Virus record (IMG/VR): IMGVR_UViG_3300037110_000161
Coordinates: 1 to 64,000 of that record
DNA length: 64,000 bases
Direction: 5' to 3' (one strand)
Source: a virus
Shown: positions 1 to 27,874 of the stretch, piece by piece
How positions within the stretch are numbered: the stretch's first letter is position 1
Layout of the letters: each line of letters starts with the position of its first letter
Position numbers and translations under genes: made by a program
The notes under the pieces: generated by a model
The model's database searches: none
The model's input: the letters and a program-made list of their open reading frames with translations, nothing else
What the model was told of the DNA's origin: nothing

Positions 1-2611
1 CGGGAGGCGTTACGTAGGGCGGGATCACCACCAGCCGGGCGTTGGCCGCCTGGCTCGTCGCTTGCCCCGTGCTGAACGAACTCGCGGGGAGAAGCGGCTG
101 TGCGGAAAAGCCCTCGTCGCCAGGCGTCCGGTCGCCCCAATCGCTTTGGCCACGGAAAACGATGTTGGGACCGCCCACGAATATGCTGCCCGTCAGCGTA
201 ATCCCATCCGTGTTACCCACCGGGAGCGCCCCAGTGGCCCGCAGTCCGATACCGCCCCCGCCCGCGTTGCCCGCCGCAATGTCCGCTTGCGACGGATACG
301 TTACAGTCGGCGACAAGGCCGCCGGCCAATAGTACGGGTCTGCCGCCAACGCGCCCGCCTTCACCGGGGTCGCGCACTCGATGTCGATGCAGTTGTTCGC
401 GGAGTCATACTCCGCCCGCTCGACGATCACGCTGACCGGGCCGGAGGCCACATAGCCCGGCGCGTTGAAGTTCACGCAATCCAGCGCCTCCAGGTTCAGG
501 TGGTTGAGATAGGTGCGGAACTTGAGCCTCTTCCAGGTGTTCGACAACCGGTTCAACCAGAACGTCGCCATCTTCAGGATGATGTCCGGTTGGTTGAAGA
601 TGTACCACTCGTAGTCCTTCTCCAGCAGGCCATAGTGGGCGACGTTGTGCCGCAGGATCATGTACTGCGGCAAGGCTTCCTGGCCCGCGGCGTACTGCTC
701 CGCGCCCGGGACATACGTCATGTACCACTTGACGTTCATCTTCGTCACCACGTCTTCCATGCGGGTGAACTCGACCTCCATGCCCTGCTCGGCGTCGATG
801 TCACTCGGCGTAATCGTGTCCACGGGCGTGGGCTCTTCCGCCAGGTACTTCAGGTAGACCACATTGTCTTCCAGCCAGAACGCGCAACGCGACTGGAAGG
901 CGATCTCCTTCAAGACTTCCACGACGTTCTTCCGCTGCAAGAGCGGGAAATTTGCCGGAAAAGGTGCCAGCTTGGTGCGGACATAATTGAAGCTGGTCGC
1001 GTCATAGGTCAAGTTCGTGTAGTTGTCGATAATGTACTTCAGAATATCGACAATGTTCGGCCCGACCGTGGATTGGAAGGTGACGTACAGGTCGTCCGAC
1101 CAACCCTGGATCAAGTCGCCGTTGGCGTCCTGATAGGCTACGGTGCTCAAAAGCTGCGGCAGGACGATCTCGACGGCGGTTATGCTGCCGTAGTTGACCG
1201 TCTGGACCGTGTACATATCGGGGGTCAACACCACCAATTGTCGTGCGCCGTTGTAGGTGCGATAGGCTTTGACCGCCAACACGGTGCCCGGCGTGATCGA
1301 GGCGATGTAGGTGACCCCGGTGTACAACTTGACCGTCGTGCCCGCGTCCGCCCAGAACTGCTTGAGAATGTAGGGGGTGGCAGGCGTCGGCACGCTCGGC
1401 GTGGTAATCGTAATCGCATCGTAAATGGCGATGCACGGATTGCCGAAATCGCCGCAGAATGAGTCGCAGGGGACGGGAGCTTCGTAATGGACGTGGCTGG
1501 ACGATCCGACCGGCTGGCAGGCAGGAAGTGCCTGGTTCAAGCTGTAGTCGAGCCATTCGTTGTACCAGGCGTTTTCAATGGCAAGCGTCGCCGTGGGATC
1601 GTTGCTGGACTCGATGTAGAAATACTCCCCCTCGAAATGGCCCGTGAAGAGCGCGCCCTTGATGTCCAGAGTGACGGTCTGGTTCTGGGGGAAATCTTCG
1701 CCGCCGAGAATCTGCACGGGGTTGGCACCGGAGCCCAAGAGCAGTTGATGGGCGCGGTCGTACTGCTGGACGCGCTTCTCCTGCGCACAGGCCGCCGCCC
1801 GCACCATCCCCGCCTCCTGCTGGCCGATCTGCGCGTAGATCGCATTGGCCTGGTTCAGGTACTTCTGCGAGGTGACGGCATCCACGGAATCCCAGCAGGA
1901 AGCCACGTTCAACAAGAAGCCCGCGTGGATGGTCTCCTGGGCAAGCTGGGCCAGGCTTTTGGGGTCGTAGGCCGGCTGGGCACCATTGAGCGCTGTACTC
2001 GTGCCGTACTCGGTGACAATCCCAACGCCTTCGAGCAGCGTGCCCTCCACGGCGGCCCCCAGCGACAGCGCCGGGTAGTCGTAAACCAAGCCGAAAACCT
2101 GCGGCCAAGCCTTGCCCACCAGGTCGGCCGGGATGTAGGGGAAATTGCCCTCCTCGGCCGAGAAGCCGCACTCCAAGTCCTCGATCTGCGAGAGGACCGT
2201 GATCTTGACGGTGCGGTCCCGCTCGCTCCAGCTCACCGGACTGTTTATCAACCCCACGAAGGTCACGAACCGGTCGCTCCAGGCAAGACCCGTGAACCAC
2301 TGGTAGAGGCGGACCGTGCGCTTGGTGATGTCGTAAGAATCAAAGAGGGCCTTGATCGAGCCATCCGTGTCGTCCAGGGTGACCTCGATCTGTTTGGACG
2401 AGTTGTTCCAGGTCGTCACGTCGATCGCGTCGTCCAGATTGCCGATCTGGATGATCGCCCCGGGGATCACGGTGCCATCGGGAGTAATGGTGCGATCCGC
2501 GTACTGCTTGGGCTGCACCCCGTCGCGCCAGTCCACTTCCACGATCATAATCGGCTCGTTGCCAAGCCGCTGGGCCAGCGCGGCAAGCCCGTTGGCAGAA
2601 ATGCTACGCAT
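1..2611 (-). CDS. Tail tip/hub-like protein, partial (C-terminus outside window)
   Basis: The minus frame is open from an ATG at 2611 to the window edge (870 codons), so the C-terminus is missing. The ATG follows AAGGAG by 8 nt. The product starts MRSISANGLAALAQRLGNEP and reads as a large, mostly beta, aromatic-rich virion protein with central stretches such as DILKYIIDNYTNLTYDATSF. Its place after the tape measure and distal tail genes suggests a tail hub or receptor-side baseplate protein. I cannot name a family. Upstream, its original overlap with the preceding tail gene has been broken by the RIT element, but its ribosome binding site survives. The dense open frames on the opposite strand here are shadows. 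Confidence 0.85.
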   Translation of the reverse strand, partial: MRSISANGLAALAQRLGNEPIMIVEVDWRDGVQPKQYADRTITPDGTVIPGAIIQIGNLDDAIDVTTWNNSSKQIEVTLDDTDGSIKALFDSYDITKRTVRLYQWFTGLAWSDRFVTFVGLINSPVSWSERDRTVKITVLSQIEDLECGFSAEEGNFPYIPADLVGKAWPQVFGLVYDYPALSLGAAVEGTLLEGVGIVTEYGTSTALNGAQPAYDPKSLAQLAQETIHAGFLLNVASCWDSVDAVTSQKYLNQANAIYAQIGQQEAGMVRAAACAQEKRVQQYDRAHQLLLGSGANPVQILGGEDFPQNQTVTLDIKGALFTGHFEGEYFYIESSNDPTATLAIENAWYNEWLDYSLNQALPACQPVGSSSHVHYEAPVPCDSFCGDFGNPCIAIYDAITITTPSVPTPATPYILKQFWADAGTTVKLYTGVTYIASITPGTVLAVKAYRTYNGARQLVVLTPDMYTVQTVNYGSITAVEIVLPQLLSTVAYQDANGDLIQGWSDDLYVTFQSTVGPNIVDILKYIIDNYTNLTYDATSFNYVRTKLAPFPANFPLLQRKNVVEVLKEIAFQSRCAFWLEDNVVYLKYLAEEPTPVDTITPSDIDAEQGMEVEFTRMEDVVTKMNVKWYMTYVPGAEQYAAGQEALPQYMILRHNVAHYGLLEKDYEWYIFNQPDIILKMATFWLNRLSNTWKRLKFRTYLNHLNLEALDCVNFNAPGYVASGPVSVIVERAEYDSANNCIDIECATPVKAGALAADPYYWPAALSPTVTYPSQADIAAGNAGGGGIGLRATGALPVGNTDGITLTGSIFVGGPNIVFRGQSDWGDRTPGDEGFSAQPLLPASSFSTGQATSQAANARLVVIPPYVTPP

Positions 2612-2618
2612 GTTGTAG

Positions 2619-2681
2619 GACTCCTTATGTGGTCAACCACATAAGGAGTCTTATGTGGCTAAGGGAGTTATGTGGCGTCCA
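2619..2681. repeat. RIT left end: nested TTATGTGG inverted repeats
   Basis: A 30-bp near-perfect palindrome (about 2620-2649; arms ACTCCTTATGTGGT and its complement) is followed by an end repeat that matches the right end in inverted orientation over about 35 bp with two or three mismatches. A third TTATGTGGCGTCCA at 2668-2681 pairs perfectly with 2718-2731, just after the third recombinase gene. That pair may be a recombination site, a terminator, or both. Confidence 0.85.
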
Positions 2682-2717
2682 ATCAGTCCCCCCGGGAATC
2701 AGGGCCGACAGCCAAAC

Positions 2718-2731
2718 TGGACGCCACATAA
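2718..2731. repeat. Inner arm of RIT left-end inverted repeat
   Basis: TGGACGCCACATAA is the exact complement of 2668-2681. It lies 10 nt beyond the stop of the third recombinase gene. Confidence 0.8.
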
Positions 2732-2740
2732 TGTAATCCT

Positions 2741-3787
2741 CTACAGCGTCTTCAGAAACTCCATCAATCCCTTGTCTTCGCGCCAGGGCTTCTTCGGCTT
2801 CTTTCGTCTCTTTCCTTCGACTTCGCAATTTGCCAGGGCTTTTGCCTTCATCTCCAGATCAACCTCTGCGTAAATGTTCGTCGTGTTAAGGCTGACGTGG
2901 CCTAGCCAGGCGCGAATCGTGTTGATGTCCACTCCAGCCCGTAGCAGGTGGGTGGCCGTCGTGTGCCGAATCGTATGGGGACTCACACGTTTCTTCGTAA
3001 TCGAAGGCAGTTTTGCCGCCACCTTCACCACGTGCCGTTCCACCAGTGTGTGAATGCCATATCGCGTTAAGGGCTGTCCACGTCGGTTCAGGAAGACATG
3101 CTCGGACGCCGCCCGGTTGCCAACCAGATCAAGTAGTTCAATAACTGTCTTGGTCCACAAGGGACAGCGGCGAGATTTGTTTCCTTTGCCATGAATGAGA
3201 ACGGACGACATGTCGCGCCCCGGCGTCGATCCCAGGTTGAGGTCGGTGATCCGCACGTGCGCCACCTCATCGGCCCGTGCGCCCGTGTTGTACAGGAACA
3301 GCAGGATGGCATGGTCCCGACGACCTTGAGCGGTGCCGCGGTCTGGCGCGGCTAACAAGGCATCCATCTCATCCTTCTCCAGGTAAGTGACCAAGGGGCG
3401 GTCGCCTTTCTTTAACGGAATGTTCCTGAGTTCCCCGTGCCATGAGAGCTGTGCAGGACTGCGCAAGGCGATGAAATGGCTCAGCGAACGAATCGCCGCC
3501 AGCCTTTGATTGCGCGTTGATGCCCCCCATCCGCGAGTCTTTTCGAGTTCTTTCAGGAAGGCACGAATTCGGGCGGCTGAAAGGTCCCCAATCCTCAGCA
3601 GGTCGAGTCGCCTGCGAGCAGCACGAGCGACGAATGGCAATAACAGGCACAACGTATCGCGGTAACTTCTTTGCGTGTTGCGGGCAAGATTCCGTTCGCT
3701 CACCACGTACTCCAGCAAGAATCGCCGGACCCAGGGGCCAAGTAAGTCGTTACTCATGGTGTCCCTCCTGTCCAGCATACAGGCCAA
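2741..3787 (-). CDS. ritC: RIT tyrosine recombinase C (348 aa)
   Basis: This is a full-length phage-integrase-family tyrosine recombinase. The N-terminal SAM-like core-binding domain covers about residues 10-110. The catalytic domain shows the first Arg in YNTGARADEVAHVRI, the HTIRH box, LGHVSLNTTNIYAEVD with the nucleophilic Tyr, and a conserved Lys region between them. It is the last of three recombinases and starts inside the end of the second gene (38-nt overlap). The C-terminus is rich in Lys and Arg. Three different recombinases in tandem are thought to act together on RIT ends; the exact role of this one is unknown. Confidence 0.95.
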   Translation of the reverse strand: MACMLDRRDTMSNDLLGPWVRRFLLEYVVSERNLARNTQRSYRDTLCLLLPFVARAARRRLDLLRIGDLSAARIRAFLKELEKTRGWGASTRNQRLAAIRSLSHFIALRSPAQLSWHGELRNIPLKKGDRPLVTYLEKDEMDALLAAPDRGTAQGRRDHAILLFLYNTGARADEVAHVRITDLNLGSTPGRDMSSVLIHGKGNKSRRCPLWTKTVIELLDLVGNRAASEHVFLNRRGQPLTRYGIHTLVERHVVKVAAKLPSITKKRVSPHTIRHTTATHLLRAGVDINTIRAWLGHVSLNTTNIYAEVDLEMKAKALANCEVEGKRRKKPKKPWREDKGLMEFLKTL

Positions 3788-4682
3788 AGCGGTTGCCAGC
3801 TTTTTCGAGCAACGCGGGGGTCATGGTGAGATAGACCTGCGTGTTCTCGATGCGAACATGTCCGAGGTAGGTGGACAGTTGTGGCAGCAACTTCTGCACA
3901 TCAGCCCCTTGCTGATACCAGGAGGTGAGGCGATCAACGGCGAACGTGTGGCGCAAGTCATGCAGCCGAGGCTGAAAACGCGCGCTATCGGTTCGGAACA
4001 CCTTAGCTCGCTTGCAGACGAAACGGAAGTAGTTCAGGATCGCCTGAGGGTTTATCCGACCGCCTGTTGTCGTGGTAAAGAATGGCGCCGTCATCTCTCG
4101 CGTCTGGGGCCGTGCGTATGCTGCCAAGACTCGGCCAAGTTGCGGTCCAAAGGGTACCAAATGAGTCTTGAGGAATTTTGTGTGGCGGATCGTCAGGCAA
4201 GAGCCTTTCCAATCCACATCGGCACGTTCCAGGTTGAGTGCCTCCTGGCGTCGCAGCCCAGCGCCATAGAGCAGCAGGAAGATGGTTCGCATGGTACCTG
4301 GTTCCACGCAAGACCGTGGACGATGGATGGTGTCGATTGTCTGTAACAAACGGCGTAGCTCTTCATGTGAGTAGATGTAGGGCACCAAGGGAGGAACCTG
4401 CTGTGGCACCACAGGTGGCAAGGGCGCCACGGACACGTAGCGGCGGCTCGTGGCATAACGGTAAAAGGATCGCAAGATGCCGTACTTGATGTGCCAAGTG
4501 CGGGTGAGCGGCCCGGCTCCCGTCAAGAACTTTTGTACTTGCTTCGGACGGACATCCGCAATATCCGCCCGTGCGCCCATAAAGCGACCGAACTTCCCAA
4601 GATGACCACCGTGTGAAGGAGGGCGGTACCCTAGCGATCTTTGGTAGGCGAGGTACTGTTGAATCAACCGTTGAAGATTCAT
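3750..4682 (-). CDS. ritB: RIT tyrosine recombinase B (310 aa)
   Basis: This is the middle recombinase of the trio and the shortest. Its catalytic domain has LLLYGAGLRRQEALNLERAD (first Arg), HDLRHTFA (His-x-x-Arg) and LGHVRIENTQVYL (Tyr). The ATG overlaps the stop of the first recombinase (ATGA), which implies translational coupling. The second gene of RIT elements usually has this divergent short form. Confidence 0.95.
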   Translation of the reverse strand: MNLQRLIQQYLAYQRSLGYRPPSHGGHLGKFGRFMGARADIADVRPKQVQKFLTGAGPLTRTWHIKYGILRSFYRYATSRRYVSVAPLPPVVPQQVPPLVPYIYSHEELRRLLQTIDTIHRPRSCVEPGTMRTIFLLLYGAGLRRQEALNLERADVDWKGSCLTIRHTKFLKTHLVPFGPQLGRVLAAYARPQTREMTAPFFTTTTGGRINPQAILNYFRFVCKRAKVFRTDSARFQPRLHDLRHTFAVDRLTSWYQQGADVQKLLPQLSTYLGHVRIENTQVYLTMTPALLEKAGNRFGLYAGQEGHHE

Positions 4683-5884
4683 CGCAGTCCTCCCAAGTCG
4701 AAGTCAGCCACCTGCCGGAGTCCGGCAATGTCCACTTTGGCATAAACGCGCGTGGTGTCAGGATTGGCATGCCCGAGATGGTCGCCAATCTCTTTTAGGC
4801 ACAAGCCTTGGGCCAACAAGTGAGTAGCACAAGCATGGCGAAGGGTGTGCGGCCCGTAATGAGGGGTGGACACGCCGAGTCGCCGCAAACGAATGGCGAC
4901 GACGTGCCACAGCGCCGAGCGAAACGGCCGGATCGGGTGGAGGAGCGTCAAAAACACCTCGCGGTGGTCCGAGCGTGGCCGTACCTCCTTGAGATAACGA
5001 AGGACAGCATCACCCACAGGGCGGATCAACGGATAGGTCCGCGTCCGTCGCGTCTTGGAAGATACGACGGAAAGTAACTCCCGATCCCAGTCGAAATCGC
5101 TGAGCCGGAGATGTCTAACTTCGCCACCCCGGAGACCGTAGATAGCAAAGAGCATGAGGATAGCGCGGTCGCGGATTTCAACCGGCCGACTTCCTTCTGT
5201 CATTGCCAGTAGTCGTCGCACTTCGTCCCAGGATGGCCCAACAGGCAGCGATACCTGGGTGAAAGTGCGAGGACTCCTGATGGCTTGTGCCAGCCCTTTT
5301 CGACACCACTGGCGTTCCTCGGCATACCGAAGAAAGGCGCGCAAGTCACCTGCGAACGTCTGAACCGTTTTCCGTGCGTACCTGTGCTGGTTAATCATCT
5401 CCAAGAACGCCTTGTCAATCTGAGTAATGCTGATCCCGCGAAGGGAACCGTTCTGGCTACCAAGGTCGCCGAGGAATTGCCGCAGGAATGTAGAGCGATG
5501 TGTCACTGTTGAGCTTGAGAAGCCTCTTTCATCTCGCATATAGTTGGCGAAGGATTCGATCCTTCTTGCATAAGGATTGGCAGGCACTGATACTTGCTCC
5601 AGGCGGCCGAGGAATTGGAGCCATCGAGTGGCAAGGGAAATAAAGCCCGACCGCTTGTCGTTGGCCTTCTGCTTGATCTCGTCACGAGAGATGTTTTCGG
5701 CGGGACGGCGAGCCAGTCTGAGAGTGTCTGCGATCCTCAAAAGCCAATCAGCATCGGCTCGTAGCGTCTTGCGGGGCAGCCCACGCTCGGCGAGGTGGGC
5801 GAGAAAGCGGCGTCGCTCCTCCGGCAGCGGGCCAGCATTATGACGCGCCAGCGCGTGCGGTTGTGTGAACAATTGCTCGAACAT
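4679..5884 (-). CDS. ritA: RIT tyrosine recombinase A (401 aa)
   Basis: This is the first recombinase of the trio. A long N-terminal region (about residues 1-100) precedes a SAM-like arm domain. The catalytic domain has IYGLRGGEVRHLRLSD, GPHTLRHACATHLL and LGHANPDTTRVYAKVD. Stop and start of the next gene overlap (ATGA). About 57 nt separate the start from the inverted repeats at the right end, leaving room for a promoter made partly by the element end. Confidence 0.95.
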   Translation of the reverse strand: MFEQLFTQPHALARHNAGPLPEERRRFLAHLAERGLPRKTLRADADWLLRIADTLRLARRPAENISRDEIKQKANDKRSGFISLATRWLQFLGRLEQVSVPANPYARRIESFANYMRDERGFSSSTVTHRSTFLRQFLGDLGSQNGSLRGISITQIDKAFLEMINQHRYARKTVQTFAGDLRAFLRYAEERQWCRKGLAQAIRSPRTFTQVSLPVGPSWDEVRRLLAMTEGSRPVEIRDRAILMLFAIYGLRGGEVRHLRLSDFDWDRELLSVVSSKTRRTRTYPLIRPVGDAVLRYLKEVRPRSDHREVFLTLLHPIRPFRSALWHVVAIRLRRLGVSTPHYGPHTLRHACATHLLAQGLCLKEIGDHLGHANPDTTRVYAKVDIAGLRQVADFDLGGLR

Positions 5885-5941
5885 AGTCGAACCTCCGAAA
5901 GGGGTGGAAACAAGAGAGACATTTCGACTATGGTACGCAAA

Positions 5942-6031
5942 TTATGTGGCGCAGGAAACGACCAGATCATCTATTTTTCGAGAGAAGGATTGGCTTCGCC
6001 ACATAACGTCCTTAGCCACATAAGACTCCTT
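5942..6031. repeat. RIT right end inverted repeats
   Basis: TTATGTGGCG at 5942-5951 pairs with CGCCACATAA at 5997-6006. A further GCCACATAA follows at 6015-6023, then the direct repeat GACTCCTT. Read on the minus strand, this end matches the left end over about 35 bp with two or three mismatches. The outermost 12 bases now encode the last codons and stop of the disrupted tail gene. Confidence 0.88.
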
Positions 6032-6413
6032 CAAACTCGATGTCGATGGCCTGCAATTCGCCGCGAGGCATGGGGGCAATCGCCGGCTGGGCCGCGTCGG
6101 GCGTATCAAACTCGAACGGGTTGTTGGTGAAGTTCCCCGCCCACACCCGGCCGCTGTGATCGGTGGCCTGCACCTTGGAGGCGAAGTAGGCGAAGATAAA
6201 GGCCCGCAACTCCAACGCCTTATTGCGCGAGAGCCAGAAGGTCCACTTCAGCTTCCGCCGTCCGCCGCGGCGCTTGACGTAGGTGTAGCGGGTCCCGTCC
6301 ATTGCCAGCTTGCGGCTCACGGAGTCCAGGATCGCTTCGGCGTCGCTGAACTGCGGGCTTGGCAAAAGCGTCGTGGTCTGAAGCGCCGGATAGGGGGCCG
6401 AAAACTGGAACAT
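6012..6413 (-). CDS. Distal tail protein, 3' end altered by RIT insertion (133 aa)
   Basis: This small tail protein ends in the motif EFEGVLCG, which parallels the EFEGELAT end of the upstream gene, so the two probably share a fold. The last codons (LCG, stop) come from the RIT end. Without the element the frame would read EGVLQHA and stop 8 nt inside the next gene. The start at 6413 lies 8 nt after the upstream stop. The fold is beta-rich with aromatic residues (KWTFWLSRNKALELRAF), consistent with a distal tail or minor tail component. Confidence 0.85.
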   Translation of the reverse strand: MFQFSAPYPALQTTTLLPSPQFSDAEAILDSVSRKLAMDGTRYTYVKRRGGRRKLKWTFWLSRNKALELRAFIFAYFASKVQATDHSGRVWAGNFTNNPFEFDTPDAAQPAIAPMPRGELQAIDIEFEGVLCG

Positions 6414-6421
6414 CGTTGCAC

Positions 6422-8053
6422 CTACGTGGCTAACTCGCCTTCAAACTCGAAGCTCGCCGTATACATGCCTCGCCCATCCTGGGTCATGGGCTCGGTGGTG
6501 TTGGTAATCACCCCCGTCCAGTAGCGCTGCTCCCAGTCCACGTAGCCAATCTCCAGACCCAAATGCGTGGTCATAAAGTCCAGGAGGCCGCGGGCCTCGG
6601 TCTCATTCAAGCCGCTGAAGCTGAGCACTTGCACCTGGACTTTGGGCCAAATCGGATCGGCAAAGACGATGAGCGTGCCGCCGCGGGTCTCGCGGCTGAT
6701 GCGGTTGAATTGCAGCCGGTCCTTGTTGCCCAAGTCGGGCGACCGCAGGGTGAGCCAATCGCTGTAAGGCGGCGCGGCTGGATAAACCAGCGTGCCCGCC
6801 GCCACGCCGGCCACCGGTGACCAGACCAGCGTTGCGGGCGGCACAGGCGAACCGGCCGAAGTCGTACCGATAAAGGGATGGTACCGCCACTCCCAGTCCC
6901 GCCGCACCACAATGAACGCAACGGCCTCTTCCAGCGATAACGCCGAGGTGGCAGAAAAGTTGCGAACGCCGGAGACCTGGGCCACATCGCCCAGCGTCAG
7001 GGCGTCTCGAAGCGCCTTGACTGCGACGGCTGCCGCTGCATCAGCAAATACGAGCGTGCTGGCCGCCAACGGCACTTTGTTCAGGTTGGCCGCTGACACG
7101 AATACCAGCGTATCCGTGGCCATCGCCGGAATCGCCGCCGCGCGAATGACAATGCCCACCGCCTGCTGGCCGAAGGACAACAAGTGGCCGGCTGTGCGCG
7201 GCTGGCCCGGACGTAACGCGGCCGTGGCTACGTCCTGGAGGCCGACTGTGTACGCGACCGCGCCGGCAACCGGATCGTAACTGTAGTAGGTCTGCGACAA
7301 CGGGTCGCTGACTGCGGCGTAAAACGGCCTGATGCAGGTCGCCTGATCCTGCAAAGTCAGGCCCAGGTTGCTCTCGGCGGACACGACGGGCTTATGCACC
7401 ACGTGCGCGGCAAGTACCGCCTGGGCAACGAGCGCTAACTGCGACTGAGCCGTGACATTGTGAATCGTGGACCGGACAAAGCCTGGGGCCAAATCGGTAA
7501 GGCTCAGGGCGTCAGTCCGCCGGCACGCCAATACGATGTTCCGGCTGGCTGCGTCCGCAATCGCCAGGGTATCGACGACATGCTTCGTCTTCTCGACGAT
7601 AGCGTGGTCAGCCAGCGCCAGCTCAATGAATGCGACCTGGCACAGATTGACGTTTACCAACTGCCCCAGGCTGATGCTGTCGGCTGCGCTGCAAAGTTTC
7701 GGCCTGGTCCTTGAGCCAACCGACGCATCCTGCACGTTGAGGCTGTCAATGGCCCGGTTGCGCTTAGTGCCATTGCAAAGGTTGTTGTCGGCAAGATTCA
7801 AGGCGTCCTGAATCTTGCATGAGATCGGCGTCAGACGGGCCGTGTCCGTAAACGTCAGCGCATCGGCAGCAGCAACATTATGAACATTACTCGGCGGAGA
7901 AGCATTGGAGATCAGGTACTCGACGTACTGTCGGCTGACCCGGGCCTTGCCGCTGCCCGTGGCCAGCACCTCGGCGACCTGTCGCGTGACCCGCACCTTC
8001 CCGGCACCCTGGACGAGCACATCTGCGTATTGTCGAGTGGTGCGGAGCGTCAT
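6422..8053 (-). CDS. Repeat-containing minor tail protein (543 aa)
   Basis: Three parts are visible. Residues 1-50 carry three copies of a short R-x-(T/S)RQ-x-x-(E/D)-x-L unit. Residues 55-390 carry many degenerate copies of a D-(A/S)-L-x-(L/F)-x-D-x-A motif separated by about 30-50 residues. Residues 390-543 form a terminal domain (GGTLIVFADPIWPKVQVQVL; IGYVDWEQRYWTGVI) ending FEFEGELAT. The last part resembles the 133-aa neighbour downstream. It lies between tape measure-side virion genes and the hub protein. A repetitive side-fibre or tail decoration role is inferred, not shown. Confidence 0.82.
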   Translation of the reverse strand: MTLRTTRQYADVLVQGAGKVRVTRQVAEVLATGSGKARVSRQYVEYLISNASPPSNVHNVAAADALTFTDTARLTPISCKIQDALNLADNNLCNGTKRNRAIDSLNVQDASVGSRTRPKLCSAADSISLGQLVNVNLCQVAFIELALADHAIVEKTKHVVDTLAIADAASRNIVLACRRTDALSLTDLAPGFVRSTIHNVTAQSQLALVAQAVLAAHVVHKPVVSAESNLGLTLQDQATCIRPFYAAVSDPLSQTYYSYDPVAGAVAYTVGLQDVATAALRPGQPRTAGHLLSFGQQAVGIVIRAAAIPAMATDTLVFVSAANLNKVPLAASTLVFADAAAAVAVKALRDALTLGDVAQVSGVRNFSATSALSLEEAVAFIVVRRDWEWRYHPFIGTTSAGSPVPPATLVWSPVAGVAAGTLVYPAAPPYSDWLTLRSPDLGNKDRLQFNRISRETRGGTLIVFADPIWPKVQVQVLSFSGLNETEARGLLDFMTTHLGLEIGYVDWEQRYWTGVITNTTEPMTQDGRGMYTASFEFEGELAT

Positions 8054-8054
8054 C

Positions 8055-9080
8055 TCAGCCTACCTCCACTCCAAATTGGACGGCGTTGATCGCCGCGGCC
8101 GACCACGCGCTGCCGGTATTGGGGTCTGTCTCGCTGATCCGCGTGGTGGTCACATAATTCGTCAGCGCGATCGCCTGGGCCGCGCCCGCACTCTCGGTTC
8201 CCCCAGACTTGATCTGCGTCTTTACGTTAAAGGCGTTGAGGTCCGTGTCCCGGCAATCGGTGTTGATCTGGACGCCCACGATCGCGCCCACCGTGGGCAG
8301 CGACCCGTAGTGCCACAGTTCTTCCTGGCCCGTCGTCACGCTTTCCAGGTAGGTGGCGTCGTCGTTGGCCGGATTCTCGTTGACCATCGTGTAATGATCC
8401 CCGGAGCCGCTGGGCGTCCATTGGGACAAGTCACCAGTCGCGTTGGGGAAGATCGCCAAGACTTTCACGTTGCCGAGGAAGTCGTTGTTGGCGGACCCAC
8501 TGCCGTCGCAAACATAGAAATCGTCGAAGAAGGGGACGTAGCCAAAGGCGATTGCCAGCTTGACGATGTTATGGTAATTGTCCGACCCCGCCTTGGTGTT
8601 CCCTGTGTAGCTGAACACGACCTGGCTACTGCTCCGCACCACGATCGAGCCGGCCGAAGCGTCACAGATGACCTTCAATTCGATGTACGCCCAGAAGCCC
8701 AGCCGCACCTGAGCCCCCGAGGTGGTGCCGAGGTGGGTGCTGCCCAAGTAAACGTCCAGTTCCGTGCTGCCGGGCGTATAGGTAACGTTGACGCCCAGGG
8801 TCGAGCCATCCATGAAGCCAATCACCGGCCCAGGGGCAGTGTACGGCTGAAAGCCGATGCCTGCGATCAACGTATTGCTGGTTGTCAGCACCGGGGTGTG
8901 AATTTCCCAGGAACCGGAGGTCGGCTGGATGCCCCAGCCGCCCGTGCGACCGGGCACTAGCTGGCAAGAACTGGCGGCGTTGGAGTAAGCGTAGCGACGC
9001 GCCAGACAGTCGCTCGGCGACACGTTGTTGAGGTTACCGGTGCCATAGCCCTCGAACCCGTCGATCCACAATAGCGACAT
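8055..9080 (-). CDS. Virion surface protein, tandem paralogue 1 (341 aa)
   Basis: Start chosen at ATG 9080 behind GAGGTG, giving MSLLWIDGFEGYG. It is clearly paralogous to the next gene upstream (MALLWIEGFEALG): both share ATYLESV/ASYVET, the DNYHNIV/DNYHNVV block, a (D/Y)D-x-YVCD stretch and an NTDCRDTD/NTDCRETD block. The body looks like a concanavalin/LamG-type beta sandwich, which would suit carbohydrate or cell-surface binding. That is inferred from the shape of the sequence only. Confidence 0.85.
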   Translation of the reverse strand: MSLLWIDGFEGYGTGNLNNVSPSDCLARRYAYSNAASSCQLVPGRTGGWGIQPTSGSWEIHTPVLTTSNTLIAGIGFQPYTAPGPVIGFMDGSTLGVNVTYTPGSTELDVYLGSTHLGTTSGAQVRLGFWAYIELKVICDASAGSIVVRSSSQVVFSYTGNTKAGSDNYHNIVKLAIAFGYVPFFDDFYVCDGSGSANNDFLGNVKVLAIFPNATGDLSQWTPSGSGDHYTMVNENPANDDATYLESVTTGQEELWHYGSLPTVGAIVGVQINTDCRDTDLNAFNVKTQIKSGGTESAGAAQAIALTNYVTTTRISETDPNTGSAWSAAAINAVQFGVEVG

Positions 9081-9093
9081 GTTCGCACCTCTC

Positions 9094-10855: not shown

Positions 10856-13800
10856 TTACAGGATCGACGTGCCGCGGCGCAACTCGCGCCGCAGCTCGTT
10901 GGCGATGGACCGGGCCGTCTGCCGGCCCGTCCCGCCCCCCTCAACACGCACGTTGATGTCGCCGACGTTGGTGACGTGCCCTCCTTGGCTGTGGTAGGAG
11001 GGCTTTACCCCGGCATTCATCGCCGTGAGCTGGCTGGCAAACCGGCGGGTCGTGGCCGCGCTCATTACCATTTCCCCCGGCGAGAGCATGGCAGGGATCA
11101 CGTCCGTGCCCCGCGGGCGTCCGCCGCCCGCCAGAAAGGCCACACCGCCATGTGCAGCCGTCAGTTTTCCTTCCATACCGGGCGGCTGCACGTTGGCTGC
11201 CGCCTGGGCCAAGCGGCTCATGGCGTCACCGGCCGCCTGAATGGTGGCCAGGAACGTCTGCATTGCGCTGTTGCCCTCGCCGATGGCGGTCGTGATCTGC
11301 GAGACCTTATTGGTCACATCCCCGGCCTGCTTGCCGGCGTCGGGAAACTTTTGCTTCAAGGCGTCCATTCCCTGATTAGACTGCTGCATTTGCTGGCCAA
11401 GATTGGGGAACTTCTGCTGGATGCCGCGCAACCGCTCCGCGTAATCGAGCATTTCCTTCAAGCTCTTGAGATTCGCTTCCGTCGAACCCATGTGAAGGTC
11501 CAGCGACCAGGGCATGTTTTTCTTCAGGTCTTGGACCTTCTTCAGCAGGTCGTCCATGCCTTTGGCGTTGATCTGCATGGGATGCGACCGCATCTGCAAG
11601 ATCGTCTCGTTGATCTCGCGGAATTTCTTGGTCGCCACGTCCAGGTCGGCCTTCCCCGTGGTTCCGAACACGCCGGTGAGCATGTTCGCGCCAACCTTGA
11701 GCGCCTGGAACACGCCCACCGCGTCGTCCTTTTGGACCGCCATGTTGCCGGCGATCTGCCGCTGGCGACTGTCGATCTGCGCCAAGGCGTCGCGCTGATC
11801 GTCGTAGGCTTGCTTGACTTCCTTGCTCAGGGTCCGCTGCTGCGTGAGCGATTGCTCGGCCGCGTGGAACTGCTCCTCCATCGACTTCCCGGCCAGTTTG
11901 GACGGGTCACCGACGTAGACATCTAGCTTGATCTTGCCCAGGCCGGTAGTGATCCGCTGGTTCAACTCGGCGAGTTTCCCAGGGGCCACGAACAGGTCGC
12001 GGATCTCGGCCTTGGTGACCGCCCCCTCCATCGTCTCCCGCATCTTGCGTTTCATCGCGTCGAAGTTGAGCCAGTCGGAGACCTCCCACTTCTTGCCCGC
12101 GAACATCAGGTTTTGGAATTCCTGCAAGTCCTGCTTGGTCTTGGCGAGGGCCTTCTCGCGGTCTTCGCCCGCGAGGGGTTGGCCCTTCTTGTCGAACAGG
12201 TCCATCTGCTTGGCCACGTCCTTGGCCAACTCCCGCATCCGAGTGACGCGCTGTTCCTCGTCGGCCGCGGCCTTGGCTGCCGCCTGGGCCTGTGACTGCC
12301 GATTGGCCTGCAAAATCTTCTGTGCATCCAGTTGGCTTCGCAGTACCCACTCGATCGCCCGCTCGGCGTCCTCCTCGCCCATAGCGTCCTTCCGCCGCTG
12401 GGCGATCGACATCGCCTCTTGGGCGAACGCCTCCGCCCTCTTGTAGATGCTCTGCGCCACGTCCGTGTCCTGCGGCGTCTTGGCCTTCGCCATCTGCTCT
12501 TGGGCCTGGTGCGCCAACTGAAGGGCACGATTGGCATAGTCGGCCTGCTGGTCCCAGCCGCCCTTTCCATGCGTCTCGTTGAAGCGAAACTGCGTATCTG
12601 CCAAGGTGCCGGAGATTTCCTTGCTCCGCTTCACGGAATCCGTGACGGCCCGCTCGGCTTCCTGGGCCAGGTTCCGTAAGACGTGAACTTCCTTCTCCGC
12701 CTCTTCCACGATCTTGTTCATCGTGGCGTGCGAATCGTCCGTCAGCCGCTTGTTGTCTCCTTTGGTGTCGTCCACCATCTGGAAGTAGGCTTTGCGCTGC
12801 GCGGCCAGGGCTTGGTTCGCCCGTTGGACGATGGCCTGGTTGGCGCGGTCCTCTTCCTCAATCCGCCGCTGGGCGGCAGCCCGGACCATTTCCAGCCGCT
12901 CGTTCTCCGCGTTGCGGAAATCCTCTTCCACCTGCCGGATACTCTGGATGATCCGGGTGTTGGCGAAGTCGAAGGCGGCATAGGCTGTCAGACCCAGTAG
13001 CAGGCCGTTAACAGCGATACCCAGAGGACCGAGCCCCAGGGCCGCCAGGCGAGCATTCATCGCCATCGCGCCCATTGCCACGGCGAGACCGCCAAAGGCG
13101 GTCACGGCCGCGCCCAGCACGGGCACCAACGCCTTGATTGCCGCGCCCAGCGCGTCCGCCCCGCCCACGAAGCCCAGGAATTGATTGACCGCCTGGACGA
13201 TCGCGGCCCCCAGGTCCGTCGTCAGGAAGGTCTTCAGCTTGTTCATCTCGGTGAGCGTCTTCTGCGCGTCGCTGTCGATGAACAGCTTGTACTTCTCGTT
13301 GAACGCCGCCACGGTCATTTCGTGGAGGTGCTCCAGGGAGTCGGCCGTCCGCTTGCCGTCCTCGTCCGTCTCGCGCAGGGCACCGCTGATGGCCCGCACG
13401 TTGGGGATCAACTTGGCGAAGGCCGCCATGTTCTCGTCCGTGCTTTCTCGCAGCTTGAGCAGCGCGCCCTCCAGGCCCAGGGCGGCGATCATCTGCGGCC
13501 CGGACTCGAAGCCCAGGCTGCGCAGTTCCTTCGACAAGTCCTGGGAGGGCTTGATAAGGGCCATCATTGCCGAACGCAGCGCCGTGGCGGCCTCGGCCGG
13601 CTTCACGCCGGAAATGGTCAGCGTGACCATCATGGCGTTCAGCTCGTCCAGGCCCACGCCCAACTCGCTCGACACGGCCGTCACGCGGCCCAGCACCGAG
13701 GCCAGTTCCTCGCCCCGCACCCGGCCGACCTGGATCGTCCCAAAAAACTTCGCCGCCACTTCCTCCGCCTGGCTGGAACTCATGCGGTAGGAGTTCAATG

Positions 13801-14539
13801 TGCCGGCAACCAGGTTCACTGCCGCGCCGGCGTCCATCACGGCAACCTTGGACAGCTTAAAGGCCGCCGTGAGCACCTCGGCTTGCTGCGCGGTGCTCGT
13901 GAATTGGTTCGAGATCGCCTGGTACTGCGCCTCGGCGACTTGGGCCAGCGGGATGTTGAACTGCCGGGACAACTCGGCCAAGTGCTGCGAGATCGAATCA
14001 AGGCTGGTGCCCACGCCCGGCGCAACGGACTGAATCTCCGCCACGCGGGTCATAAATTGCAGGTTGGAGTCGAACGCCTCGTGCATCGCGTCACGCATGG
14101 CGCTGAGCGCGCGGACGATGGCCTGCGTCATTACGACGCGGCTCAAGGTCTCCCACGAGACGACGAAATGGGCCGCCGCCTTGTCGGCATCCTCGATCGG
14201 CGTCTTGTCGATCTGCGGCGTGACCTTCGGCACTTCTGTCGGCGTGACCGGCGCGGTTGCTTGGCCAGGAGTTTGCCCGGGGGCGGCGGCGCCGCTGGTC
14301 GACTGGGCGCTAAAAGCGGATTGCAGTTTCGCCATCGCGGTGGCGGCCGTATTGGCGCTACTGGCAATGTCCTTGAGGATTTGCACCGTCTCGGCGGCCT
14401 TGGTGTTCCAGGTCGCCATCGCGTCGCCCACGGAGCCCAGCCGGGCCTCGAAGCTGCCCAAGGCGCTGTCCATCTTCGCCAGCGCATCCAGTGCGGCACT
14501 GGCGTCGAAGCCCAGACTTTGGACAATTTCATCCGCCAT
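10856..14539 (-). CDS. Tail tape measure protein, TP901 type (1227 aa)
   Basis: This is the longest gene of the window, as expected for the protein that sets tail length. Residues about 130-400 carry the TP901/PhageMin_Tail-type region, with NQFTSTAQQAEVLTAAFKLS, GRVRGEELASVLGRVTAVSS and SGVKPAEAATALRSAMMALI. A hydrophobic segment near residues 455-515 (VLGAAVTAFGGLAVAMGAMA) follows, as is usual for such proteins. Residues 530-1100 are largely helical and coiled-coil. Near the end is AMLSPGEMVMSA, a motif I know from many tape measure C-termini. It is directly downstream of the tail chaperone pair and a completion protein. Confidence 0.95.
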   Translation of the reverse strand: MADEIVQSLGFDASAALDALAKMDSALGSFEARLGSVGDAMATWNTKAAETVQILKDIASSANTAATAMAKLQSAFSAQSTSGAAAPGQTPGQATAPVTPTEVPKVTPQIDKTPIEDADKAAAHFVVSWETLSRVVMTQAIVRALSAMRDAMHEAFDSNLQFMTRVAEIQSVAPGVGTSLDSISQHLAELSRQFNIPLAQVAEAQYQAISNQFTSTAQQAEVLTAAFKLSKVAVMDAGAAVNLVAGTLNSYRMSSSQAEEVAAKFFGTIQVGRVRGEELASVLGRVTAVSSELGVGLDELNAMMVTLTISGVKPAEAATALRSAMMALIKPSQDLSKELRSLGFESGPQMIAALGLEGALLKLRESTDENMAAFAKLIPNVRAISGALRETDEDGKRTADSLEHLHEMTVAAFNEKYKLFIDSDAQKTLTEMNKLKTFLTTDLGAAIVQAVNQFLGFVGGADALGAAIKALVPVLGAAVTAFGGLAVAMGAMAMNARLAALGLGPLGIAVNGLLLGLTAYAAFDFANTRIIQSIRQVEEDFRNAENERLEMVRAAAQRRIEEEDRANQAIVQRANQALAAQRKAYFQMVDDTKGDNKRLTDDSHATMNKIVEEAEKEVHVLRNLAQEAERAVTDSVKRSKEISGTLADTQFRFNETHGKGGWDQQADYANRALQLAHQAQEQMAKAKTPQDTDVAQSIYKRAEAFAQEAMSIAQRRKDAMGEEDAERAIEWVLRSQLDAQKILQANRQSQAQAAAKAAADEEQRVTRMRELAKDVAKQMDLFDKKGQPLAGEDREKALAKTKQDLQEFQNLMFAGKKWEVSDWLNFDAMKRKMRETMEGAVTKAEIRDLFVAPGKLAELNQRITTGLGKIKLDVYVGDPSKLAGKSMEEQFHAAEQSLTQQRTLSKEVKQAYDDQRDALAQIDSRQRQIAGNMAVQKDDAVGVFQALKVGANMLTGVFGTTGKADLDVATKKFREINETILQMRSHPMQINAKGMDDLLKKVQDLKKNMPWSLDLHMGSTEANLKSLKEMLDYAERLRGIQQKFPNLGQQMQQSNQGMDALKQKFPDAGKQAGDVTNKVSQITTAIGEGNSAMQTFLATIQAAGDAMSRLAQAAANVQPPGMEGKLTAAHGGVAFLAGGGRPRGTDVIPAMLSPGEMVMSAATTRRFASQLTAMNAGVKPSYHSQGGHVTNVGDINVRVEGGGTGRQTARSIANELRRELRRGTSIL

Positions 14540-18294: not shown

Positions 18295-19731
18295 TTAGCC
18301 CTGGAGCACGACGCAGAGGCGGTCGTCCAGGACGGCCACACCGGCGAGAATGTCCAGGTTGACCACCGTGCCGCCGTTGGCGATGCTGTACTGCATCGAA
18401 ACCCGCATGGCGATGTCGTTGTAGACACCGACGTGCGACAGCACGCCCATCGCGTTGTTGGGGATGGCCAGCGGACGGGTGACCAGGGCGATGGCGTTCC
18501 GATGGAAGGCCAAGTTCAGTGCGCCGGCCGGGCCGGGATAGCACTTGTCGCCGCTGGCGACAGCCTGCTCCAGCGGCCGATCCACGTAGATCGTCTGCTG
18601 GCCGGCGGCCGACAGGTAGGACTCGATCACGGTGTAGGTCACGCGGCCCGCACCGGTGCCGAAGGCGACCAACTGCCCGATTTGCGGGGCAGCGTTCCAG
18701 CCGGTCAAGACGATCCCTTCCACGTAGCCCGCGGCGTAGGCGGCACCTGCGACGCACGCCTTGTAGACCGTCAGCGGAGCGCTGGCAGCCGTGGCGTACT
18801 TGTTCACCTCGTTCAAGGTGATGGCCGTGGTGGCACCGGTCGCGGTGGTCGCGGCGGTGATGTACGTCGGCTGGTCATTTCCGGCCACGACGGCGAACTC
18901 GCCGATGTTCACGGCATAGTCGGCCAAGGTGACGGCCTGCGACCCGCCCGCGCCGGTGGCCAGGGCATTGGTGACGGTGCCCGTGGTGTCGGCATCAGCG
19001 TTGGCCAGCGAGGGGCTGTTGACGTTCTGGTCCATGTAGGTGTCGAAGCCCAGAATCCGTCCCAGGGTGGCGCTTTCCAACGCCGTACCGAAGTCGCCGC
19101 GCATCTGGGCGGCGATGAACAACTCGTTCTTCAACAGCGCGGTCTCGCTCACGGGAGCAAGCACCAGGTTGCGACCTTCCAGCGGGGCCTTGTTGATGTT
19201 CAACTGCTCGCGGGCTTCCAGCACGTAGTCCTTGCTGTTCTGGCAGGACAAGTTGAGCAACCGGCCGACGCGCCCGCTCGGGCCACCGTTGGCCAGGGCC
19301 GGGGTCAAAAAGGCATGGACGCGGCCCAGCACGGCGCGGTCCACCGAGCGGGCGATGGTCATCATGCCCGGCCGGAGGTAGATGTCCACCAGGTCTTGGA
19401 AGGACTTGCTGGCCTCGCCGTCCTTGATGGTGAAGCTGGTGTAGAACCACTGGTCCAGCGGCACCTTGACGTTCGTGGCCGAGGCATCTTGGTTCTGCAA
19501 GGGATCGCCGTCCGCCTTGCGGCGAATCTGGAACGTGCCGGGCCGGCGGGTGTTCACCACGTCGCCGAACTGCCGGATTTCGTTCTCGAAGTCGCGGTGG
19601 ACCAGGTTGGCGATCACCATGTTCTCTTGGAGGATCGCCAAGCCTTCCGAGGCCCACAGCTCCGGGATGAAGGCGGTGTTGTCGTTGTCGTAAGAGACGA
19701 CCACCGCGGGGGAGAGGTACAACGGATTCAT
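18295..19731 (-). CDS. Major capsid protein, P22 coat-like (478 aa)
   Basis: Residues 20-200 read as a P22-type HK97-fold coat: FIPELWASEGLAILQENMVI, VHRDFENEIRQFGDVVNTRR, FTIKDGEASKSFQDLVDIYL, SVDRAVLGRVH. A Thr/Ala-rich stretch (about 230-360) looks like an I-domain or other insertion. The end (VSMQYSIANGGTVVNLDILA) completes the coat core. The first 15 residues, MNPLYLSPAVVVSYD, nearly repeat those of the scaffold gene upstream. The order scaffold-coat-neck-tail supports the assignment. Confidence 0.92.
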   Translation of the reverse strand: MNPLYLSPAVVVSYDNDNTAFIPELWASEGLAILQENMVIANLVHRDFENEIRQFGDVVNTRRPGTFQIRRKADGDPLQNQDASATNVKVPLDQWFYTSFTIKDGEASKSFQDLVDIYLRPGMMTIARSVDRAVLGRVHAFLTPALANGGPSGRVGRLLNLSCQNSKDYVLEAREQLNINKAPLEGRNLVLAPVSETALLKNELFIAAQMRGDFGTALESATLGRILGFDTYMDQNVNSPSLANADADTTGTVTNALATGAGGSQAVTLADYAVNIGEFAVVAGNDQPTYITAATTATGATTAITLNEVNKYATAASAPLTVYKACVAGAAYAAGYVEGIVLTGWNAAPQIGQLVAFGTGAGRVTYTVIESYLSAAGQQTIYVDRPLEQAVASGDKCYPGPAGALNLAFHRNAIALVTRPLAIPNNAMGVLSHVGVYNDIAMRVSMQYSIANGGTVVNLDILAGVAVLDDRLCVVLQG

Positions 19732-25981: not shown

Positions 25982-27874
25982 CTATTCCTCTTGATTGTGC
26001 TTGCCCTGGCCGCGCACGGGCGTCTTGGTCGTGTCGTTGAGAGTGGTGTCGCGGCTGGCGGCCTTCTCCACCTTGCCCGCGCCGGGGTTTGCCGAGAGAT
26101 CGTGGACGCCACGCGCGCCGGCGTCGCTGTTCATCTGCCCGACCTCGTTCAAGGCCGTGGATTCGGAGCCAGCCAGTTTCTCGGTAGCCGGATCGCGGCT
26201 GGTGGCCCCGGTGGTCTCGGTGCCCAATTGGCCGCCTCTTTGCTGGGCCTGCAAAATCCGAATCGCCCTGGCCGCATGGTCCGCGCGGGCCTGGATGTGC
26301 TCGTCGTCGTTGAAGCCCAGGGCCATTGAGCCGGTCTTCTCGCCGCACAGACCGGCCTCGACCGCCGCAATGATGGTCGTGGGGTCGCTGGTGGCGTAGG
26401 GGGCCTTGTCGATCTCATCGAAGATGGCTTGCATGTCGCTGACGCTGATCTTGCCTCCCAAAAGCGCCAAGACGATGTTCTTTGCCAGCTCGCGTTTAAC
26501 CTTCTGCCCGGGCACGGCGTACATCAACTTGACCAGGCTTTGGGCTTCCGCAATCCGATCGGAATCCGTCTTCAGGCTGTAGCGGTCGGGATATTTGATT
26601 GTGGCGACGTTCCGCTGCGAAACGTTTCGCTCTTCGTAGGCCGCCCAGAACTCGGCAATCTGCCGCTCGGCCGCCTCCAGGACCAAACCGATGTAGGACA
26701 GACCGGCTTCAAGCCCTTGGTTGTCCATCGACTTCGATTCCGCCGTGGCCCGGTTCGCCGTGTCTGCGACGGCCAGATGGATCAGCTTGCGGATGCCGTC
26801 CTCCAGCTTGGCTTGCAGGTCCATCGACGCCTTTAACGGTTCGCTCGACGGGTTGATGAACGAGGGAGCGTTCATCCCCTTGTCGTAGGTCCGGCCCTGA
26901 GTCACTCCGACCCGGATGTCATTGTCGGCACCAGGCTGTCCGCCCGTCGTCGCCGTCCCGTCTTCGCCCACGGAACTCTTTAAGTGGCCGCCCGTGGCCC
27001 GCTGGTCCTTTTGCTCGATATAGAAGGGGAAGTTGGCCTTGAGGGCGTAATTCACGTCGCCCGAGCCCAGGTTCAAAAGCGCGATCTGGTGCTCCACCAC
27101 GTCCTTAATCATCGAGTCGCCGATGTCCAGCAACACGAAAGGGATGCGCGTCAACTCCAACTCCACGGCCCCGGCCGGGTTCCCCTCACGGTCGATGGGA
27201 TTTCCGGCGGTGTCCAGAAATTGCAGGTTGACCAGACCCGTGTCGCGGTCGATCCACAACATGCGGAACCGCTCGACGGTCGTAGTTGGCAGGTAGGTCC
27301 GCTGGTCGAAGTTGAGAACTACGTCGCGGAGCAGAATCGCCTGGAACGTGGACGGCTCGTCCGGCTTGGAGCAAGTCCAGCTCAGGATGTCTTCAATGGG
27401 GTAGAAGTACAGGTACGGCCGATAATTCTTCACGTCCGCCAAGGTGGCGTTGCCCGGGACCAGTGGGGAATCGACGTACACGCCCACGCGGCCCATAATG
27501 AGCAACTCGGTCAGTACCTTGATGCCCAAGAAGCCGTTCATGGTGTTGCCGCGGAGATCGACGCCCAGGTCCAAGCCGTTGACCGCCCGCTGATACGCAC
27601 TGCTGCCGTCGCGCCGGCTCGTGTCCTTGAGCCGCTGGAAGATGGCATTGCGGACATCGTTGATAGCCACCCGAGCAAACGATGGGATCGGCGTCATATC
27701 CAGCCGCGCCTGGAACTCCGGTTCATCCTCCCGCGACGAGAACTTTTTGAGGTACAGCTTGCGGAAGTATTCGCCGCCGTTGTAGCAAATCCGCCATTTG
27801 CGCCAGTCCAGCAGGCTGCTGAGGTAACTCGGGTGCCTGACTTCGACGATGTTGGTGATGAACTCAACAACCAA
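25982..27874 (-). CDS. Portal protein, DUF4055-like (630 aa)
   Basis: The portal forms the dodecameric DNA gate of the capsid vertex. The N-terminal part carries PSFARVAINDVRNAIFQRLK and a wing region; FLGIKVLTELLIMGRVGVYV and VVEHQIALLNLGSGDVNYAL are typical of this portal group, and GGHLKSSVGEDG lies between. The clip/stem region has LEDGIRKLIHLAVADTANRA followed by LSYIGLVLEAAERQIAEFWA. About the last 110 residues are hydrophilic (TGATSRDPATEKLAGSESTA) and may be a flexible tail. It follows the terminase gene by 12 nt. Confidence 0.92.
   Translation of the reverse strand: MVVEFITNIVEVRHPSYLSSLLDWRKWRICYNGGEYFRKLYLKKFSSREDEPEFQARLDMTPIPSFARVAINDVRNAIFQRLKDTSRRDGSSAYQRAVNGLDLGVDLRGNTMNGFLGIKVLTELLIMGRVGVYVDSPLVPGNATLADVKNYRPYLYFYPIEDILSWTCSKPDEPSTFQAILLRDVVLNFDQRTYLPTTTVERFRMLWIDRDTGLVNLQFLDTAGNPIDREGNPAGAVELELTRIPFVLLDIGDSMIKDVVEHQIALLNLGSGDVNYALKANFPFYIEQKDQRATGGHLKSSVGEDGTATTGGQPGADNDIRVGVTQGRTYDKGMNAPSFINPSSEPLKASMDLQAKLEDGIRKLIHLAVADTANRATAESKSMDNQGLEAGLSYIGLVLEAAERQIAEFWAAYEERNVSQRNVATIKYPDRYSLKTDSDRIAEAQSLVKLMYAVPGQKVKRELAKNIVLALLGGKISVSDMQAIFDEIDKAPYATSDPTTIIAAVEAGLCGEKTGSMALGFNDDEHIQARADHAARAIRILQAQQRGGQLGTETTGATSRDPATEKLAGSESTALNEVGQMNSDAGARGVHDLSANPGAGKVEKAASRDTTLNDTTKTPVRGQGKHNQEE

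What the first reader, a model, noticed from the sequence alone, without database searches (positions are those of the whole stretch)
2604..6413. RIT element precisely interrupts two overlapping tail genes, and the original junction can be rebuilt
Deleting the element with one GACTCCTT copy restores a frame that ends EGVLQHA and stops inside the start of the next gene (ATGCGTAG overlap). With the element, the upstream protein ends EGVLCG and the downstream gene keeps its AAGGAG site. So the insertion changed only a few C-terminal residues and kept both genes translatable: a phage operon tolerating a mobile element.
Basis: seen in the sequence. Interest (0 to 1): 0.75.

Follow-up and report, generated by a model that had tools for sequence, protein, structure and literature searches.

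The report
Recombinase trio inserted between phage tail genes
A small mobile DNA element carrying three recombinase genes has inserted cleanly at the boundary between two tail genes of a bacteriophage, and comparing it with related phages and about 25 other copies shows the original sequence and suggests how this poorly understood kind of element integrates and chooses its sites.

Summary
Window 2625-6023 is an intact RIT element (ritA, ritB, ritC) at the 3' end of a 133-aa tail gene. Joining the flanks gives EGVLQHA*, ending inside the next gene's ATGCGTAG. The nearest relative, L005, has this junction uninterrupted and equally long; none of 64 related phage loci has the element there. Blast against L005 overlaps by exactly 6 bp (GACTCC), so the repeat is 6 bp, not 8.

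The hexamer occurs three times: at both outer ends, and inverted inside, between a 20-bp palindrome (P) and the terminal repeat. The same layout recurs in about 25 RITs from phages, plasmids and chromosomes. In three lineages the RIT sits in either orientation while P stays on one side of the target. The inner hexamer resembles the present target (4.6/6 against 2.3/6 expected). I infer a circular form whose joint holds two inverted 6-bp crossover sites, either usable, with the inner hexamer recording the previous target. Several lineages repeatedly hit one homologous gene.

That both tail genes still work is inference. The element is a known kind. Its phage setting and the two-site model look new, but Ricker 2013 could not be read and no activity is shown.

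The parts
6012..6413 (-). Upstream tail gene as interrupted (133 aa, ends EGVLCG; the stop TAA at 6012-6014 lies in the element's terminal repeat)
   Evidence: No Pfam, NCBIfam or PHROG hit. Structural alignments are nearly all tail-tube/baseplate-type proteins, but best Z is only 7.7 and mean pLDDT 65. Lies downstream of the tape measure gene. 64 viral relatives.
2..2611 (-). Downstream gene (870 aa, runs to the window edge), start codon intact 7 bp from the outer hexamer
   Evidence: 98% aa identity to L069, same contig as L005. No family hit; structure model unusable.
2604..2611 (-). ATGCGTAG: start of the downstream gene and, in the empty site, stop of the upstream gene
   Evidence: Sequence; joined translation; the equivalent overlap is present in L005.
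2621..2626 (-). AAGGAG ribosome-site-like hexamer before the downstream ATG; its AA (2625-2626) is element sequence
   Evidence: Sequence.
2619..2624 (.). Outer hexamer GACTCC on the palindrome side (core of the target)
   Evidence: Blast edge against L005 at 2624.
2625..2644 (.). Palindrome P, TTATGTGGTCAACCACATAA: two recombinase arms back to back
   Evidence: (I5); same element part in L073 and viral RITs.
2645..2650 (.). Inner hexamer GGAGTC, reverse complement of the outer hexamers
2651..2677 (.). Terminal inverted repeat, ritC side, beginning TTATGTGGC
   Evidence: I1.
2741..3757 (-). ritC, 338 aa from ATG 3757 (longer TTG start at 3787 possible); overlaps ritB by 8 bp
   Evidence: best match to RitC PHG136; catalytic R171, HxxR 271-274, H297, Y306.
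3750..4682 (-). ritB, 310 aa; overlaps ritA by 4 bp (ATGA)
   Evidence: best match to RitB PHG135.
4679..5884 (-). ritA, 401 aa
   Evidence: best match to RitA PHG134.
5997..6023 (.). Terminal inverted repeat, ritA side, ending GCCACATAA
   Evidence: I1.
6024..6029 (.). Outer hexamer GACTCC on the ritA side
   Evidence: Blast edge against L005 at 6024.

Best explanation
A complete RIT (recombinase-in-trio) element integrated by tyrosine-recombinase site-specific recombination at a 6-bp core (GGAGTC on the coding strand, the Gly-Val codons of a conserved FEGV motif) at the 3' end of a phage tail gene. Inferred mechanism: the mobile form is a circle whose joint reads TIR_C - hexamer - palindrome P - inverted hexamer - TIR_A. 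P supplies a second pair of arms, so the joint holds two crossover sites in inverted orientation and either can recombine with a target core. The product always reads outer hexamer - P - inner hexamer - TIR...TIR - outer hexamer; the RIT can face either way, but P lies on a fixed side of the target core. Outer hexamers come from target and/or donor, and the inner hexamer is left from the previous site. Here the joint hexamer between P and TIR_A was used. All three hexamers are identical, so the donor copy probably sat at the same core, plausibly a homologous tail gene in another phage. Shown: anatomy, empty site in a relative, 6-bp repeat, recurrence of the layout, orientation rule. Inferred: circle, strand exchange, donor history, tolerance by the phage.
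For: Empty site in L005 and exact 6-bp overlap. No RIT at this site in 64 relatives. RitA/B/C best match the named RitA/B/C of pHG1 in the right order, catalytic residues intact. Same layout in L073 with GACCCG. RIT in both orientations with P on the same target side: Mesorhizobium AR02, E. coli methylase genes, phage copies L152/L153 against L154. Inner and outer hexamers match 4.64/6 over 25 elements against 2.31/6 permuted, 0 of 20,000 permutations as high. Inner hexamers equal targets of sister copies (L154/L153, L152/L154, L145/L158). 6-bp spacer behaviour is experimentally known for the related SE elements (PMC10214605).
Against: No circle, excision or transposition was observed for this or any RIT here. 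The 25 elements are partly related, so the permutation test overstates independence. L079 shows an inner hexamer unrelated to its target (2/6), L076 has P at both ends and L140 none next to the RIT, so the scheme does not cover every copy. No second insertion at the FEGV site was found, so recurrent use of this tail gene is a guess. The hexamer occurs 25 times in the window, so it cannot be the whole target signal.
Confidence: 0.75

Rival explanations
1. Insertion with a true 8-bp duplication (GACTCCTT), either transposase-like or with an 8-bp crossover region, so that the flank TT is also derived from the event.
For: The repeat does read 8 bp in the window. The window's GAA codon is rare among relatives (1 of 43 GAA), as if the A came from the element.
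Against: The element encodes only tyrosine recombinases, which do not make target duplications by staggered repair. In other elements the identity stops at 6 bp (L147 AACCCG then TT/CC; L145 then TT/CC). Blast against L005 gives 6 bp.
Confidence: 0.12
2. The inner inverted hexamer is copied from the present target during integration, for example through a hairpin at the palindrome, and does not record an earlier site.
For: Perfect inner/outer match in the window, L073, L147, L095, AR02 and most E. coli copies.
Against: Inner and outer differ in L079, L080 (right end), L088, L152, L154 and others, and inner hexamers equal targets of sister copies.
Confidence: 0.07
3. Assembly chimera: a RIT from another replicon joined to the phage contig by error.
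For: The record is a metagenomic virus contig and reads were not available.
Against: Both junctions carry the hexamer and the element-specific ends, both flanks belong to the same gene junction, and other viral contigs carry RITs with both junctions.
Confidence: 0.03

Closest known systems
RIT elements, e.g. Cupriavidus necator H16 pHG1 and C. metallidurans CH34 ritABC (PMC2864759, PMC3414803)
   Same: Three adjacent overlapping tyrosine-recombinase genes in the order A-B-C, about 3.4 kb, terminal inverted repeat with an overlapping palindrome, insertion inside a gene.
   Different: Lies in a phage tail operon and leaves both genes nearly whole. Protein identity to pHG1 trio only 33-37%. The 2012 survey listed no RIT protein in phages.
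SE elements and GInts (PMC10214605, PMC5385486)
   Same: Several tyrosine recombinases, 6-bp (GInt 6-7 nt) crossover spacer, target- or donor-derived spacer at the ends, target specificity.
   Different: They have a fourth gene, a single spacer in the circle joint and large cargo. The RIT here has no cargo and an extra palindrome that would give two spacers.
Tn916-like coupling sequences (as discussed in PMC10214605)
   Same: Hexamers at the ends that may come from donor or target (compare L080, L102).
   Different: RITs prefer homologous cores within a lineage, use three recombinases and carry no conjugation genes.

Membership tests
RIT element | Three consecutive tyrosine-recombinase genes in the order ritA-ritB-ritC with short overlaps (4-8 bp, PMC3414803) | tested here: met
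   PF00589 in all three; overlaps of 4 bp (ritA/ritB) and 8 bp (ritB/ritC) in the sequence.
RIT element | Each protein belongs to its own RitA, RitB or RitC family | tested here: met
   Best pHG1 match of A, B, C is RitA PHG134 (34.6%), RitB PHG135 (32.8%), RitC PHG136 (36.7%).
RIT element | Possible catalytic motif R-H-Y in all three | tested here: met
   Invariant catalytic residues in alignments A1-A3.
RIT element | About 3.5 kb with a terminal inverted repeat of about 28-34 bp and an overlapping palindrome | tested here: met
   3.4 kb; 35-nt repeat; 20-bp palindrome next to it.
RIT element | Extra domain features: two core-binding domains in RitA, extra C-terminal helix in RitC (PMC8138268) | not tested
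   No structure prediction was made for the Rit proteins.
RIT element | Mobility | not testable with these tools
   Only indirect evidence: occupied window site and empty site in relatives.
GInt / SE element | Conserved fourth gene (ginD or srap-type) beside the recombinases | tested here: not met
   Only the three recombinase ORFs fill the element.
Phage tail proteins (interrupted genes) | Tail-tube/baseplate fold or a curated tail family | tested here: inconclusive
   No PHROG or Pfam hit; fold matches nearly all to tail proteins but Z below 8; position after the tape measure gene.

The most novel reading that the evidence does not exclude
RIT elements use a palindrome to build a circle joint with two inverted 6-bp crossover sites, so they insert in either orientation, and they keep in the inner hexamer a record of the previous target. 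Some lineages live in phages and hop between homologous copies of one phage gene; the window's lineage uses the end of a tail gene, where damage is small.
Probability: 0.5. Interest if true: 0.75.

Novelty: new member of a known kind. Interest (0 to 1): 0.55.

Why it matters
In the literature readable here, RIT elements have been known since 2009 without exact ends, a target rule or a mechanism; the 2012 survey found the end repeats unconvincing and could not explain the need for three recombinases. An insertion with a clear empty site, compared with about 25 others, fixes the ends to the base, gives a 6-bp core and yields a concrete joint sequence that PCR can test. It also indicates that phages, including several related to this one, are regular carriers of RITs and could spread them.

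Tried and rejected
(1) Inner hexamer templated by the present target: rejected as a rule, since inner and outer differ in many copies. (2) Palindromes without RIT genes as excision scars: L091 and L094 carry P alone, but about one chance match is expected in the collection by my estimate and no relative without P was examined; not claimed. (3) Other insertions at the FEGV site: 26 pattern hits, none with RIT genes or the tail gene. (4) Scan for CCACATAA-N6-TTATGTGG: most of the 20 hits are hairpins without RIT genes; only L090, L099 and L101 fit. (5) Structure of the 870-aa protein: unusable, mean pLDDT 32. (6) Sequence search of both tail proteins against the PDB: nothing credible. (7) RitA scan of viral contigs found nothing; the RitC alignment found 22. 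(8) Terminators inside the element: no more than shuffles allow. (9) Tyroviruses have three tyrosine recombinases, but scattered, so not a RIT.

Full report
1. Observation. On the minus strand the window reads: 133-aa tail gene (6413-6012), ritA (5884-4679), ritB (4682-3750), ritC (3757-2741), then an 870-aa gene from 2611. The three proteins are phage-integrase-family tyrosine recombinases with their catalytic residues in place. The inverted repeat, the direct repeat and the EGVLCG / EGVLQHA endings are as described.

2. Empty site. A scan of viral contigs with the 133-aa protein gave 64 related loci. In the closest, L005 (95% aa; the neighbouring 870-aa protein on the same contig is 98% identical), the junction is uninterrupted and has exactly the length of the rebuilt one: GAG GGA GTC CAG CAA TAT GCG TAA against GAA GGA GTC CTA CAA CAT GCG TAG. 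Blastn aligns window 1-2624 (94.3%) and 6024-9090 (87.8%) to L005 with a 6-bp overlap. The repeat is therefore GACTCC; the further TT is palindrome on one side and flank on the other. No RIT genes lie in the fetched flanks of any of the 64. The residues after FEGV vary among relatives (QQYA, PPNA, EQ and others), so the change to LCG is plausibly harmless. The stop/start overlap is however separated, and expression of the downstream gene is untested.

3. The phage. PHROG matches give terminase (27887-29581), portal (25982-27874), major head protein (18295-19731) and tape measure (10856-14539) on the same strand. The interrupted genes lie downstream of the tape measure. The model of the 133-aa protein aligns almost only with tail-tube and baseplate proteins, at middling Z. 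'Tail genes' is therefore likely but not proved.

4. End anatomy. In + orientation: GACTCC (2619-2624), palindrome P TTATGTGGTCAACCACATAA (2625-2644), GGAGTC (2645-2650), terminal repeat from TTATGTGGC (2651-2677), genes, terminal repeat to GCCACATAA (5997-6023), GACTCC (6024-6029). The arms CCACATAA / TTATGTGG flank the inner hexamer as inverted half sites, the layout of a tyrosine-recombinase core site with a 6-bp crossover region. The planctomycete element L073, the closest bacterial one found (RitC 73%), reads GACCCG-P-CGGGTC-TIR...TIR-GACCCG, with P on the other side of the trio.

5. Comparison set. Further RITs were taken from genome contigs, plasmids, E. coli genomes, viral contigs and Planctomycetota genomes. 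(a) Orientation rule: in Mesorhizobium AR02 two copies sit in the same target, which looks like a group II intron, with the RIT inverted, yet P is on the same side of the target. The same holds for E. coli copies in the DPF motif of DNA methyltransferase genes such as yhdJ and for phage copies L152/L153 against L154. A joint TIR_C-hexamer-P-hexamer'-TIR_A with two usable inverted sites explains this directly. (b) Hexamers: the reverse complement of the inner hexamer matches the outer one at 4.64 of 6 positions over 25 elements, against 2.31 for permuted pairs, with none of 20,000 permutations as high. The elements are partly related, so this is not 25 independent tests. Where the two differ, the inner hexamer can equal the target of a sister copy (L154 inner = L153 outer; L152 inner = L154 outer; L145 inner = L158 target). 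This fits a record of the previous site better than copying from the present one. (c) Outer hexamers can differ between the two ends (L080 GGCCGC/AACCAT; L102 GAGCGT/GAAAGG), as expected if one is donor-derived.

6. RITs in phages. Viral copies L096, L100, L102 and L143 lie in homologues of one gene (DEQREVLLPLVER|CADVI...), their hexamers mostly being codon variants of Glu-Arg. L152-L155 and L159 share a second gene, L145 and L158 a third. Three contigs that carry an empty homologue of the window's tail gene carry a RIT elsewhere: 3300037484_001943 (L056, L140), 3300032118_000010 (L022, L145) and 3300041955_000428 (L013, L151). In the RitC tree the window groups with L073 and a viral clade (91/89), and the viral label needs at least three changes. 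The 2012 survey lists no RIT protein in phages (PMC3414803).

7. Mechanism. Most likely the element was a circle with the joint above; the hexamer between P and TIR_A recombined with GGAGTC of the tail gene, leaving P on the downstream side. Three identical hexamers suggest that the donor sat at an identical core, plausibly the same tail gene in another phage: of 43 relatives scored, 8 have exactly GGAGTC and many others a one-base variant. The hexamer alone occurs 25 times in the window, so flanking recognition must contribute. Shown: insertion, 6-bp repeat, layout, orientation rule. Inferred: circle, strand exchange, donor history, tolerance.

8. Known or new. RIT membership is met on every defining feature tested. 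The published description of the ends is an inverted repeat with an overlapping palindrome and unexplained variation (PMC3414803), or 34-bp repeats (PMC10214605). SE elements and GInts show 6-bp spacer behaviour with one spacer. The two-site joint and the hexamer record were not found in the readable literature, but Ricker 2013, the main paper on RIT ends, was not readable. The element itself is a new member of a known kind.

Noticed in passing
L086:14253-21110: Mesorhizobium AR02 plasmid: a distantly related RIT is inserted in the ritB gene of another RIT.
   Followed up: partly
L143:3935-6680: About 2.7 kb with an IS91-like transposase and a tyrosine integrase lies between the RIT terminal repeat and its palindrome in a viral contig.
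   Followed up: partly
L118, L119, L120, L084: E. coli WP4-S18-ESBL-07 holds copies of one RIT on the chromosome and three plasmids, all in DNA methyltransferase genes at the same Asp-Pro codons.
   Followed up: yes
L147:3700-7140: A viral-contig RIT sits in the NPPF motif of a DNA-methyltransferase-like gene.
   Followed up: partly
L140:3700-7200; L144: RITs in viral contigs flanked by inverted copies of phage gene sequence, as if a rearrangement had occurred through the element.
   Followed up: no
L091:804-823; L094:2689-2708: Palindrome of the P type at one homologous locus in two viral contigs without RIT genes; possible scar or chance.
   Followed up: no
L174 (G313:C1:3825541-3826539): Planctomycete ritC with an in-frame TAA, probably a decayed copy.
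   Followed up: no
window 48780-49739 (-): The phage has its own serine-recombinase-like gene (PHROG DNA invertase / integrase).
   Followed up: no
window 37420-39426 (-): The phage carries an uninterrupted DNA methyltransferase gene, the kind of gene other RIT lineages target.
   Followed up: no
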